Positions 25,405 through 52,803 of a stretch of DNA of 64,000 nucleotides are shown one piece after another. The stretch is taken from positions 1 to 64,000 of IMG/VR virus record IMGVR_UViG_3300032770_000022. One strand, written 5' to 3'. The position numbers and the translations under genes are program-made. The notes under the pieces were generated by a model that worked only from the letters and a program-made list of their open reading frames with translations, was not told the origin of the DNA and ran no database searches. How positions within the stretch are numbered: the first letter of the stretch is position 1; the number at the start of each line of letters is the position of its first letter. Origin of the DNA: a virus.

Positions 25405-25480
25405 CTCGTGCGTGAGGTGTCCTCTGTGAATGAGGCCCGGCAGGGTCCAATCTCCCTTGGTTCCCATCCCTGCCGGCGCT
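25405..25480 (-). promoter_or_regulatory. Orphan copy of the hairpin plus CAGAGGAC element
   Basis: Read on the minus strand, CCGGCAGGG...CCCTGCCGG (25437-25445 with 25468-25476) forms a 9-bp stem with an inner CCAA/TTGG pair, followed after 8 nt by CACAGAGGACA. This is the order seen before three genes of the 26-28 kb operon, but here no start codon follows. The gap 25373-25650 holds this element and the TTGACA-ACGGAAC repeat at 25585; I see no gene. Confidence 0.4.
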
Positions 25481-25844: not shown

Positions 25845-26065
25845 GCCCTGATCCTCCGTTGTATCAGCTTCAATTCCACGCGCTCGGCGCGGCAGTTCGA
25901 GCATAGCCGGGCGATCTCGCCCTCGGGCGACAGCCCGCACACCCATTGTCCGCAGTTGCAGCAGTCGAAGCCGGTCGGATCGGTCGGCGACGGCGGATGG
26001 CGGTTGCGCGTCAGTTTCTCCCTGGCACCCTGCTCGCGGGTGCTGTAGCGCACGATGGCGTCCAT
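25841..26065 (-). CDS. Zinc-ribbon protein
   Basis: 74 residues. CCNCGQWVCGL and LCSNCRAE (about residues 35-62) make a four-Cys zinc ribbon followed by a basic helix (ERVELKLIQRRIRA). It overlaps both neighbours. Probable small DNA-binding protein. Confidence 0.55.
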   Translation of the reverse strand: MDAIVRYSTREQGAREKLTRNRHPPSPTDPTGFDCCNCGQWVCGLSPEGEIARLCSNCRAERVELKLIQRRIRA

Positions 26066-26283
26066 CAGCCGCCTCCCTGGTTGATGACGTTCGTGGCCCA
26101 GATCGACGCGTCGAGCAGTTCCTCCCAGACGCGCTCGGGGATGGGCTGGCGCTGGATGTTGCGATTGATGACCATCGCCGCCGCGTCGCGCAGACGGCGC
26201 AGCGCGTCGAGCTTGATGTCGTCCTCGATCACGGAGATCGCGTCGGCGATCAGTCCGCGCGAAACCGGAAACTTGTCGCTCAT
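26065..26283 (-). CDS. Small hypothetical protein
   Basis: 72 residues from the ATG at 26283, preceded by the CAGAGGACAAC ribosome site and the double-hairpin element at 26306-26349. Helical (LIADAISVIEDDIKLDALRRLRDAAAMV). Function unknown. Confidence 0.55.
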   Translation of the reverse strand: MSDKFPVSRGLIADAISVIEDDIKLDALRRLRDAAAMVINRNIQRQPIPERVWEELLDASIWATNVINQGGG

Positions 26284-26356
26284 TGTCGGTTGTCCTCTGT
26301 GGTTCCCTGGCTGGTCCAGGCAGATGCAGCGGACGTTCCGCTGCATCTGTCGCGGA
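26284..26356 (-). promoter_or_regulatory. Double-hairpin intergenic element, copy 1
   Basis: Minus-strand order: stop codon, TCCGCGAC, a 13-bp perfect stem (26321-26333 with 26337-26349), a 5-bp stem CCTGG/CCAGG (26306-26310 with 26316-26320), CAGAGGAC, ATG. Two related spacers occur at 26816 and 28037. The hairpins may protect or separate transcripts or regulate translation. Confidence 0.6.
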
Positions 26357-26815
26357 TCAGGCTGTGATGCGGGGACATGCTCCATCGTTCTTGATGACCC
26401 GTTGGACGCGGTCGATGACATCGCCCGGCGTGATCTTCCACGATCTGTTCGGATACGAATCCGGGTCGAACAGGTACGCCGCGGCGCTCTTGGTGATGTC
26501 GTAGAATTCGGCCGCCGCCTCATAGTCCATGCTTCCTGCGAAGCAGGGCGTGCAACGCAGTCCGGTGTTTCCTTTCAGCCTTTCGTTGTATTCCTCGATG
26601 GTGTGGATGGTGTTGCCTAGGACGTCTCCGCCGAGGTAGACGCGCAGGCTAAGACCTGCGGCCTGCATCAGCGGATCGAGCGCGGCGTAGCCGAAGGCAC
26701 ACGCGACCGTGCCGCATGCCTCTCGTTCGATCCACGAACCCATGTTGAACGCGAGATGCTGTTCCTCGACGCGGCGCAGGATCGCGATCTGGTGCTGTAG
26801 TCTGTCTAGGTTCAT
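26357..26815 (-). CDS. Hypothetical protein with CGTVACAFG motif
   Basis: 152 residues from the ATG at 26815. WIEREACGTVACAFGYAAL (about residues 28-46) carries the Cys-x-x-x-x-Cys-Gly motif of small phage proteins of unknown function; two further Cys (LRCTPC) follow. The gene is flanked on both sides by double-hairpin elements. Confidence 0.5.
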   Translation of the reverse strand: MNLDRLQHQIAILRRVEEQHLAFNMGSWIEREACGTVACAFGYAALDPLMQAAGLSLRVYLGGDVLGNTIHTIEEYNERLKGNTGLRCTPCFAGSMDYEAAAEFYDITKSAAAYLFDPDSYPNRSWKITPGDVIDRVQRVIKNDGACPRITA

Positions 26816-26905
26816 TTCGGTTGGTCCTCTGCTCGGGTTGTCCTGGACTGGTCCAGGCGGAAGGGGCAACGCACCCTTTCGGATGCGTGCCCCTGCCGTC
26901 GCGGA
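26816..26905 (-). promoter_or_regulatory. Double-hairpin intergenic element, copy 2
   Basis: After the DUF932 stop: TCCGCGACGGCA, a 10-bp stem with one bulge (26863-26873 with 26884-26893), a small stem CCTGGA/TCCAGG (26842-26847 with 26852-26857), then CAGAGGAC and the ATG at 26815. Flanks match copy 1 closely while the stem sequences differ and still pair. Confidence 0.6.
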
Positions 26906-28036
26906 TCAGGCTGCGATGCGGCGACGTGCCGGCGCGTTGTCCTGCGCCGTCGCGATCTGCTTCCACTCTCCCGGACCCAGATCAATTATCTCGCCGCCGA
27001 TGCGTTCGAATTCACTCGCACGGTCGTAATTCTCCAGGTCCTCGGCGGCGCGCGTGATGCTGTTGAACAAGCCATAGCGGGTTAACGATCCGCCCTCGAT
27101 CAGATGCCGCAGCACCCCGCCCTGCTCCGTCTCGGTCATGCCGAAGCGGCGCGCGGCGAACTCCACCACCTTGACCGGATCGCCCTCGATCTTCTGGGCG
27201 ACGGTTTCGGTGATCTTGGCGATGCGCGCCTGGAAACGCGCCTCGTCGAACGCGGCCCGCGCGACGTCGCGGACCTGCATCCACAGCGCCTTGTCGGTCT
27301 GCGCCCTGGTCTCGTCCGACAGCAGTTCCATCACCCCGTCGCCGGCGGCGATCTCGTGCCGCGCGCCGACGTGGCGCCGCTTCATGCTCTCGGTCTTGAA
27401 CACGGCGAGATTGGTGCAGGCCCGCGTCCACACGGCGGTCTCCACGCTGATCGCGCCAGCGCCCACCTCCGAGTTGGAGATGACGATGGCGGGGACGCAG
27501 GTGTCGAAGATCGTGTGGCTGCCGTCGCCCATGCGCCCGCGCGGGATGTCCGCGTTGATGCTCTGGTCGACCGCCTTGAGGTAGAGCCGCCGCTCCGTAA
27601 GCTCGCAGGAGATGACCTCCAGCCTGAGGTCGGCGAACACGGGCAGCACCGCCTCCGCCAGATCGACGTTCTCCAGCGGGCGGTACTTGTCGGACAGCAG
27701 CGCTCGCACGTTGCCGTCCATCGCCCTGACCAGCCTATTCTCGTGCTTGAGGTCGAACCAGGTGTTGACGTTCTGCACGAGCAGGTGCGGCGCCTCGGCG
27801 AGCATGCGGTCGTAGTACTTGCCGGGGATTTCCGTGTAGGTGCCGATCTGGTCGTGGGCGAGCGAGTTGATCCCGAACACGTCGCGGTCGCCGACGCCGA
27901 GCAGCACGCCTGACGGCCTGTCCGGGTTCTTGACGAGCATCGCGATGTCCTGGGTGGACGCCACGAGGTCGCGCTTGGCGTTCTGCTGCCGATCGATCTC
28001 GATCGCGAGGTCGGTCAGTGATTTGCCGGTCTTCAT
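26906..28036 (-). CDS. DUF932 family phage/plasmid-like protein
   Basis: 376 residues from the ATG at 28036. GVGDRDVFGINSLAHDQIGTY, IPGKYYDRMLAEAP, ALLSDKYRPLENVDL and the middle SNSEVGAGAISVETAVWTRACTN are DUF932 landmarks. The family is widespread on phages and plasmids; the activity is not established. It is the largest gene of the operon and the likely reason for its separate control. Confidence 0.85.
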   Translation of the reverse strand: MKTGKSLTDLAIEIDRQQNAKRDLVASTQDIAMLVKNPDRPSGVLLGVGDRDVFGINSLAHDQIGTYTEIPGKYYDRMLAEAPHLLVQNVNTWFDLKHENRLVRAMDGNVRALLSDKYRPLENVDLAEAVLPVFADLRLEVISCELTERRLYLKAVDQSINADIPRGRMGDGSHTIFDTCVPAIVISNSEVGAGAISVETAVWTRACTNLAVFKTESMKRRHVGARHEIAAGDGVMELLSDETRAQTDKALWMQVRDVARAAFDEARFQARIAKITETVAQKIEGDPVKVVEFAARRFGMTETEQGGVLRHLIEGGSLTRYGLFNSITRAAEDLENYDRASEFERIGGEIIDLGPGEWKQIATAQDNAPARRRIAA

Positions 28037-28119
28037 TGTGTTTGTGTCCTCTGTTGGTGTCCTTGCTCCTGGCAAGGCGGTAGCAGCGCCACCTCGCGAT
28101 GCGCGCTGCTGCCGTCACG
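28037..28119 (-). promoter_or_regulatory. Double-hairpin intergenic element, copy 3
   Basis: After the HTH stop: GTGACGGCAG, a long stem (28079-28089 with 28103-28113; core AGCAGCGC/GCGCTGCT), a small stem CCTTGC/GCAAGG (28061-28066 with 28072-28077), then CAGAGGAC and the DUF932 ATG at 28036. Same architecture as copies 1 and 2 with different paired bases. Confidence 0.6.
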
Positions 28120-28317
28120 TCAGGATGAAAGCAGCCACTCACGGCATTCTGGCGACCGCTCAGCCAGCACCAGCAGTCGCCGCGTCGGCTCAGGTATCCT
28201 CATCGTGCCGGCGAGGTAGCGTTCGGCTGTTCTGGTATCGACGCCCACCAGCCGCGCGAGAGCGCCCACGGTGAGGCCCAGGCGCTCCCGGTAGGCGCGC
28301 AGTTCCTCGGCGGTCAC
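28120..28317 (-). CDS. XRE-family HTH regulator
   Basis: 65 residues. MTAEELRAYRERLGLTVGALARLVGVDTRTAERYLAGTMRIPEPTRRLL is a textbook XRE helix-turn-helix. Probable autoregulator of the DUF932 operon, lying between the operon promoter and DUF932. It overlaps the upstream gene by ATGA. Confidence 0.75.
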   Translation of the reverse strand: MTAEELRAYRERLGLTVGALARLVGVDTRTAERYLAGTMRIPEPTRRLLVLAERSPECREWLLSS

Positions 28318-52011: not shown

Positions 52012-52803
52012 ATGGCTGCCGTCAAAGATATACTCCGCCGGTTCTATGTCTACATCATCTTCCGATGGGACGGCTCACCATGCTACGTCGGCAAGGGCAG
52101 AGGCGATCGGTGGCTGAGACATGCCAAGAATAGCACCAATCGCCACCTCGGGCGCATATATGCTCAAGCTGGCGGAACCCTTCCGATCATCAAAGTGCGC
52201 GAAGGGCTGACGCACGCCGAAGCATGCGAAACCGAGATTGCTTTGATTATCGCGATTGGACGTGCCGACTTGGGACGTGGCCCTCTGGTGAATTTCACCG
52301 ATGGAGGAGAGGGTATGCTTGGCCATCGTCCATCCCCGGAGACATGCGAGAAGATTGCGTCGAGCCATAGAGGCCGACCGCTTTCCGCAGAACACAAAGC
52401 GCAGATCGGCGAGACCCAGCGGGGTAAGCCAAAACCTGACGGACACGGCGCCAAAGTAGCTGCTGCGCTTATCGGCCATGTCATATCAGAAGCGACTCGG
52501 GCCAAGATCGGTGCGGCAAATCGTGGCCAGAAGCGATCTCCTGAACAGGTCGAGCGGATGCGTATCGTCGCATCATCACCTGACGTAGTTGCAAGACTGC
52601 GTGCTGCCAATCTCGGGAAGAGAGCAACGCCCGAAGCGCGTGCCAAAATGATCGCATCGCGGAAAGGCAAGCCAAGCCCGAAACCACCTGGGTTCGGAGC
52701 CACAGTCAGCGCAGCAATACGCAGAAGGAAGTTATTAGCGCAGTGCCGCGAGGGGGCCGGCGCTGGACCATTGTTCGACTATCGACCGGAATCTGATCAA
52801 TGA
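52012..52803 (+). CDS. GIY-YIG homing endonuclease 2
   Basis: 263 residues. RRFYVYIIF and PCYVGKGRGDRW are the GIY/YIG elements; KVREGLTHAEACETEIALI carries the catalytic Arg and Glu; NFTDGGEGMLGHRPSPETCEKIASSHRG, PLSAEHKAQIGETQRGKPK and SEATRAKIGAANRGQKRSPEQ are three or more NUMOD3-like DNA-binding repeats. Inserted between tape measure and a tail gene, ending in an overlap with the latter. Confidence 0.88.
   Translation: MAAVKDILRRFYVYIIFRWDGSPCYVGKGRGDRWLRHAKNSTNRHLGRIYAQAGGTLPIIKVREGLTHAEACETEIALIIAIGRADLGRGPLVNFTDGGEGMLGHRPSPETCEKIASSHRGRPLSAEHKAQIGETQRGKPKPDGHGAKVAAALIGHVISEATRAKIGAANRGQKRSPEQVERMRIVASSPDVVARLRAANLGKRATPEARAKMIASRKGKPSPKPPGFGATVSAAIRRRKLLAQCREGAGAGPLFDYRPESDQ

What the first reader, a model, noticed from the sequence alone, without database searches (positions are those of the whole stretch)
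26284..28119. Three intergenic elements with compensatory paired hairpins before CAGAGGAC ribosome sites
The spacers 26284-26356, 26816-26905 and 28037-28119 (minus strand) share one design: stop codon, TCCGCGACGGCA-like flank, a long stem (13, 10 and 11 bp), a small stem (CCTGG/CCAGG, CCTGGA/TCCAGG, CCTTGC/GCAAGG), CAGAGGAC, ATG. Flanks are conserved while stems differ and still pair, so structure itself seems selected. A fourth, gene-less copy lies at 25405-25480. This could be a phage RNA element for mRNA processing, stabilisation or translational control.
Basis: partly seen in the sequence, partly recalled or inferred. Interest (0 to 1): 0.75.

Follow-up and report, generated by a model that had tools for sequence, protein, structure and literature searches.

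The report
Candidate ribozyme elements between phage genes
Three short spacers between genes of an uncultured phage belong to a previously unlisted family of folded RNA elements, seen here about 48 times in nine phage contigs, that sits exactly where related phages carry known self-cutting RNAs, so it may be a new kind of self-cutting RNA that chops one long phage message into single-gene messages.

Summary
D (25405-25480) is not a member. I found about 48 such elements in nine IMG/VR contigs, covering nearly every gene junction of an operon in five of them. P1, P2 and the CCU...RGG stem all covary; none matches Rfam. In contigs G001, G002 and G012, the same junctions carry hammerhead II/III or twister ribozymes before the same ribosome site. 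At four sets of homologous genes this element in one phage is replaced by a hammerhead (one of them degenerate) in another. Best reading: an intercistronic mRNA-processing element interchangeable with self-cleaving ribozymes, and plausibly a new ribozyme class itself. Cleavage is inferred, not shown; in vitro transcription would settle it. RNase III processing and non-cleaving leader functions remain open.

The parts
28119..28125 (-). Element A, P1a TCCTGAC; contains the TGA stop (28120-28122) of the upstream HTH gene
   Evidence: sequence; parser; stop position
28115..28118 (-). Element A, J strand GTGA
28078..28114 (-).
28061..28077 (-).
28046..28053 (-). CAGAGGAC ribosome site; start codon ATG at 28034-28036
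26906..28036 (-). Gene after element A, 376 aa, phrog_1362; 71% identical to the gene after element L234-9314
26903..26909 (-). Element B, P1a CTGATCC, containing the TGA stop of the 376-aa gene
26899..26902 (-). Element B, J strand GCGA
26858..26898 (-). Element B, P2 long hairpin
26842..26857 (-). Element B, CCT + P1b GGACCAG (26848-26854) + S 3' strand TCCAGG
26824..26831 (-). CAGAGGAC ribosome site; ATG at 26813-26815
26357..26815 (-). Gene after element B, 152 aa, weak phrog_889 match
26354..26360 (-). Element C, P1a CTGATCC, containing the TGA stop of the 152-aa gene
26350..26353 (-). Element C, J strand GCGA
26321..26349 (-). Element C, P2 long hairpin (13 bp)
26306..26320 (-). Element C, CCT + P1b GGACCAG (26311-26317) + S 3' strand CCAGG
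   Evidence: covariance model hit 43.5 bits
26292..26299 (-). CAGAGGAC ribosome site; ATG at 26281-26283
26065..26283 (-). Gene after element C, 72 aa, no family found
25405..25480 (-).

Best explanation
A, B and C are members of a structured RNA class, called class X here, that fills the spacers of a phage operon from the stop codon of one gene to the ribosome site of the next. The RNA has a 7-bp helix P1 whose 5' strand holds the stop codon, a J strand ending in GA or GTA, a long variable hairpin P2, an invariant CCU, the P1 3' strand, and an RGG that pairs with CCU. The last stem (S) can extend to about 6 bp only by taking nucleotides from P1, so P1 and S compete. SHOWN: the class, its covariation, its position, and that in related phages the same junctions hold hammerhead or twister ribozymes before the same CAGAGGA ribosome site. 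INFERRED: it does the ribozymes' job, cutting the polycistronic transcript between genes and leaving each downstream mRNA with a hairpin just 5' of its Shine-Dalgarno sequence; and it most likely does so by cutting itself. The cut site is unknown. By analogy with the type II hammerheads I would look first at the P2/CCU junction and in the J strand. Confidence that it is a processing element equivalent to the ribozymes is about 0.75; the value given here is for self-cleavage.
For: Relatives found by terminase carry ribozymes at these sites. Rfam hits in L023: twister-P1 E 5.6e-9, 6.4e-6, 3.8e-5; hammerhead III 4.5e-6; twister-P5 2.5e-4. Weaker hammerhead III hits lie in L027 (0.018) and L233 (0.019). 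Exact-core hammerhead II/III regex hits fall before CAGAGGA starts, with one false hit in about 1.1 Mb. Homologous downstream genes have class X in one phage and a hammerhead II in another: L233-12041/L234-8076/L027-2998 vs L024-3907; L024-1011 vs L023+4922; L233-9933/L027-1462 vs L024-266 (degenerate core); L233-13411 vs L027-3402 and L024-4269 (weak homology, E about 1e-5). P1: 5.29 of 7 pairs vs 4.04 when partners are swapped, 0/20000; P2: 5.72 of 6 vs 4.05, 0/20000. Pair counts: covariation score 0.603 vs 0.242 shuffled and at most 0.185 when slid; 114 double changes vs 33. S extension 2.42 vs 1.86, 0/20000, and all 48 elements have an RGG partner for CCU. P1 follows the stop codon in it: CTAACCC/GGGTTAG, CTAGCCT/GGGCTAG, CTGACCC/GGGCCAG. 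About 41 of 46 CAGAGG starts in the five richest contigs carry it vs 6/879 ribosome sites elsewhere.
Against: No cleavage has been shown. Class X shares no catalytic core with any Rfam ribozyme. Few nucleotides outside helices are invariant (CCU, the J A, one P2 G), fewer than in most known ribozymes. Replacement by hammerheads shows equivalence of place, not of chemistry. In A, B and C the S hairpin is about as stable as, or more stable than, P1, so which state forms is uncertain. Element choice used a parser that rewards pairing, which inflates the pairing figures somewhat, although the X-rich contigs were nearly exhausted without selection. Orthologue matches with E near 1e-5 are weak.
Confidence: 0.5

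Rival explanations
1. The elements are cut by a host ribonuclease, most likely RNase III at the long P2 hairpin, as at the intercistronic sites of phage T7 early mRNA (from general knowledge). They would replace the ribozymes functionally without being catalytic.
For: Intercistronic place; P2 is a 10-20 bp hairpin of freely changing sequence; ribozymes occupy the same junctions in relatives.
Against: A plain duplex site does not explain the separate covarying helix P1, the invariant CCU with its RGG partner, or the conserved J strand. P2 is as short as a 26-nt hairpin in some copies, below the usual RNase III length.
Confidence: 0.22
2. A non-cleaving leader: a bistable RNA whose P1 holds the stop codon, so that a terminating ribosome opens P1 and lets S form, tuning translation or stability of the next gene.
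For: The stop codon lies in P1a in 32 of 48 cases; P1 and S share nucleotides and both covary; the ribosome site follows S by a median of 4.5 nt.
Against: Neither state pairs the Shine-Dalgarno sequence. Hammerheads and twisters without this switch replace it at homologous junctions. Overlap with the stop codon may only reflect compact packing.
Confidence: 0.2
3. A binding site for a phage or host protein that stabilises or autoregulates the mRNAs.
For: Many near-identical architectures in one operon; conserved positions beside helices.
Against: No protein candidate was found; replacement by unrelated ribozyme folds at the same sites is hard to explain.
Confidence: 0.06
4. Intrinsic terminators, mobile repeats or chance hairpins.
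For: Strong G+C-rich hairpins in spacers.
Against: No T-run follows any stem; 6 of 879 comparable ribosome sites fit elsewhere; covariation; stems share no repeat sequence.
Confidence: 0.02

Closest known systems
Hammerhead ribozymes clustered between genes of (pro)phages (Perreault et al. 2011, PMC3088659)
   Same: Several copies flank single genes in phage operons; that paper proposes processing of long phage transcripts into single-gene mRNAs. Type II and III hammerheads occur at the same junctions in relatives of this phage.
   Different: Class X lacks CUGANGA, GAA and the three-way junction; its helices are P1, P2 and S with a P1/S crossing.
Twister ribozymes (RF03160, RF02684)
   Same: Found at the same junctions in L023 and, by its sequence motif, in L027; enriched near phage genes and hammerheads (PMC10085705).
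   Different: No UAA...AAGCC...GAGG core in class X.
HDV-like ribozymes (HDV-F-prausnitzii, RF02682)
   Same: One junction element in L024 looks HDV-like by eye (P1 GTTCAAC/GTTGGAC) and is weakly matched there (19.2 bits, E 5.8). Class X also has a 7-bp P1 crossing a short C/G helix.
   Different: In class X the hairpin lies outside the CC strand, there is no P4 or J4/2, and no Rfam hit.
SAS/ESAS of cluster K mycobacteriophages (PMC3203893)
   Same: Repeated start-associated elements with inverted repeats just upstream of ribosome sites in phage non-structural genes.
   Different: There the 17-bp inverted-repeat sequences are conserved and the spacer varies; here stem sequences vary freely and flanks are conserved. 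The 13-bp GGGATAGGAGCCC is absent.
Non-circularly permuted hammerheads (type SGC, CSG; PMC10085705)
   Same: Pseudoknotted small RNAs sought near known ribozymes.
   Different: They keep all hammerhead core blocks; class X has none.

Membership tests
Hammerhead ribozyme | CUGANGA, GAA and NUH core in a three-way junction | tested here: not met
   No Rfam hit in the window even at E 10; no regex hit in the window. Met by neighbours in L023, L024, L027 and L233.
Twister ribozyme | Conserved UAA, AAGCC and GAGG with two pseudoknots | tested here: not met
HDV-like ribozyme | Nested double pseudoknot with P1, P2, P3, P1.1 and catalytic C in J4/2 | tested here: not met
   No Rfam hit for class X; topology by hand differs
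Other Rfam families (pistol, hatchet, twister-sister, RAGATH and the rest) | Match to a covariance model | tested here: not met
   cmscan of all 4227 families, window elements at E 10, L233/L234/L225 at E 2
Self-cleaving ribozyme (as a kind) | Self-scission giving 2',3'-cyclic phosphate and 5'-OH ends | not testable with these tools
   Needs in vitro transcription
Self-cleaving ribozyme (as a kind) | Compact conserved structure with crossing helices and covariation | tested here: met
RNase III intercistronic site (T7 type) | Long duplex as main determinant, cut by host RNase III | tested here: inconclusive
   P2 hairpin 26-70 nt in all, but other conserved parts are unexplained
Intrinsic terminator | G+C-rich stem followed by a U-run | tested here: not met
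   No U-run after any stem
SAS/ESAS | 13-bp GGGATAGGAGCCC at starts, conserved 17-bp inverted repeat | tested here: not met
   Sequences compared with PMC3203893

The most novel reading that the evidence does not exclude
Class X is a new class of self-cleaving ribozyme, built around a helix that contains the stop codon of the preceding gene and competes with a protective 5' hairpin of the following mRNA. Cleavage could then answer to translation of the upstream gene, and each phage could cut nearly every gene junction of an operon with its own copy.
Probability: 0.45. Interest if true: 0.92.

Novelty: new variant of a known kind. Interest (0 to 1): 0.82.

Why it matters
Clusters of hammerheads and twisters near phage genes have been known since 2011, and a 2023 paper still calls the reason unknown (PMC10085705). 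Here ribozymes of at least two and probably three classes, plus an unlisted RNA class, alternate at homologous junctions immediately before the same ribosome site. That is direct comparative evidence that intercistronic cutting itself is what selection keeps. It also hands the field a compact, testable candidate for a new ribozyme class with about 48 natural variants.

Tried and rejected
Flank-based pattern scan TGATCCGCGAC...CAGAGGAC in viral contigs: five hits, none with element-like structure. Relatives by the 376-aa gene (L002, L003) lack the element; L002 has its own operator-promoters. Relatives by the 152-aa gene: none. Rfam on the window: nothing. GenBank phages: no close nucleotide relative; nearest terminase is Shewanella phage QDWS at 49%, and neither it nor Faecalibacterium phage Roos gave a convincing element. 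Bacterial genomes: the ribosome-site pattern gave 47 loci without elements; the class X pattern gave one spurious match in 754 genomes of two classes. The covariance-model search of whole genomes scored only 150 of thousands of candidates per genome and is uninformative. I considered class X as a permuted hammerhead, pistol or HDV ribozyme by hand and rejected it for want of the core nucleotides. Element D was rejected as a member. Three of the 27 rows of the covariance-model alignment (A5) were abbreviated by hand; that model was used only for the searches, not for the covariation statistics.

Full report
CHECK OF THE OBSERVATION. The window is 64 kb of a 65,141-bp IMG/VR virus record. It has a primase/helicase, RecT, terminase and portal, so it is a tailed phage. 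The three spacers lie in a leftward operon that runs from about 29.4 kb to a terminator near 25.65 kb. Each contains a long hairpin, a short hairpin, CAGAGGAC and ATG. Folding is better than shuffled sequence for all three (z -3.5, -3.3, -3.9). The fourth site D has a hairpin and CAGAGGAC but fits neither the class parser nor the covariance model.

FINDING RELATIVES. Scans with flanking patterns and with the neighbouring genes gave little. The large terminase subunit gave 14 and then 80 viral loci. Two adjacent hairpins followed by CAGAGGAGCACC and ATG appeared in L009 and L014 with different stems. Listing every CAGAGGA start in these records gave about ten per record, all on the operon strand.

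RIBOZYMES IN THE SAME PLACE. Many of those elements are self-cleaving ribozymes. cmscan found twister-P1 (E 5.6e-9, 6.4e-6, 3.8e-5), twister-P5 (2.5e-4) and hammerhead III (4.5e-6) in L023; a hammerhead III in L027 (0.018) and in L233 (0.019); and a weak hammerhead II in L024. These are below Rfam's curated gathering scores, but the catalytic cores are intact: an exact-core search finds hammerhead II at L024 -3970, -4628, -3121 and -4348, L023 +4849 and L027 -2521, and hammerhead III at L023 +3956 and L027 -3570, nearly all just before a CAGAGGA or CAGAGGG start, with one false hit in about 1.1 Mb. L024 -5193 looks HDV-like by eye, and the HDV-F-prausnitzii model matches that very stretch, but only at E 5.8; I treat it as tentative.

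CLASS X. The rest of the elements, and A, B and C, share another plan: P1a, a J strand ending GA or GTA, P2 hairpin, CCU, P1b, RGG, ribosome site. Further copies came from a P1-based pattern and from the ribosome-site pattern: L160/L233, L215/L234, L221/L288, L154/L286, L284/L287. I tabulated 48 elements in nine contigs with a fixed geometry. In the five X-rich contigs about 41 of 46 CAGAGG starts carry one, and one of the exceptions is a hammerhead III (L233 -13788). Among 879 ribosome sites in other loci the parser fires six times, at four distinct places.

COVARIATION. With identical geometry for all, P1 forms 5.29 of 7 pairs against 4.04 when partners are swapped between elements, and P2's outer six pairs form 5.72 against 4.05; no permutation of 20,000 reaches either. 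On the 43 distinct sequences, 114 cells show changes on both sides against 33 in shuffles, and the covariation score 0.603 falls to 0.185 or less when the partner strand is slid. CCU has an RGG partner in 48 of 48, and the next three nucleotides of that stem also covary (2.42 vs 1.86, 0 of 20,000; for the nine elements without GG there, 2.67 vs 0.94). Those three nucleotides are also the start of P1b, so P1 and the full S stem exclude each other. Both being conserved suggests two states or a strand exchange; this is inference.

STOP CODONS. The upstream gene's stop codon lies in P1a in 32 of 48 elements, including A, B and C. P1b changes with it: GGGTTAG opposite CTAACCC, GGGCTAG opposite CTAGCCT, GGGCCAG or rarely GGGTCAG opposite CTGACCC-like strands. 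With TGA the fourth pair is usually an A.C mismatch (25 of 48) although an A-U pair was available. An A+.C wobble with a role is possible but not tested.

REPLACEMENT AT HOMOLOGOUS JUNCTIONS. Comparing the genes after the elements with the element classes: one family has class X in L233, L234 and L027 and hammerhead II in L024; a second has class X in L024 and hammerhead II in L023; a third has class X in L233 and L027 and a degenerate hammerhead II (CCGAUGA) in L024; a fourth, with weak homology, has class X in L233 and hammerhead II in L027 and L024. L234-5604 (class X) matches L023+5830, which is twister-like but degenerate. The gene after window element A is 71% identical to the gene after L234-9314; both have class X.

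INTERPRETATION. Position, repeated use, strand, ribosome site and one-for-one exchange with known ribozymes point to the same job: defining mRNA ends between genes. Perreault et al. 2011 proposed this job for clustered phage hammerheads (PMC3088659), and the 2023 permutation paper describes collecting RNAs near known ribozymes as a lead to new ones (PMC10085705). Whether class X cuts itself cannot be decided from sequence. RNase III at P2 is the main rival. Class X has no Rfam match and lacks the hammerhead, twister and HDV cores, so it should not be filed under any of them.

LIMITS. All relatives are uncultured metagenomic contigs; the host is unknown; no element was found in 754 sampled bacterial genomes or in the two GenBank phages examined, with limited search power. 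Cleavage, cut site and effect on expression are untested.

Noticed in passing
L002 6430-6500, 6960-7030, 4817-4850: Relative L002 has repeated palindromic operators (TAGGACACCGTGTCCTA) lying between TTGCGA-like and TATATG-like promoter boxes 17 bp apart, followed by a hairpin leader and a GGACAC ribosome site: probably repressor-controlled early promoters in multiple copies.
   Followed up: no
L024 5196-5262 (minus): Junction element with HDV-like layout by eye and a sub-threshold HDV-F-prausnitzii match; would add a third ribozyme class to this phage group.
   Followed up: partly
L289 4043-9325 (plus): Contig G015 carries variant elements with CCCC/GGGG in place of CCU/RGG before ACAGAGG starts; possibly a divergent branch of the class.
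   Followed up: partly
L024 -4553, -4269; L023 +4922; L027 -2451: In the type II hammerheads the stem I loop can pair with sequence after CUGANGA (TTGCCC/GGGCAA, TGCCCT/AGGGCA, TGCCC/GGGCA), a possible covarying tertiary helix just before the ribosome site.
   Followed up: no
window 43911, 52072, 54932: Three repeats encoding GIPCYVGKG-like peptides; the two ORFs at 52012 and 54305 match NUMOD3, so probably GIY-YIG homing endonucleases inserted among late genes.
   Followed up: partly
(48 elements): An A.C mismatch is kept at the fourth P1 pair in 25 of 48 elements although A-U would be allowed by the stop codon.
   Followed up: no
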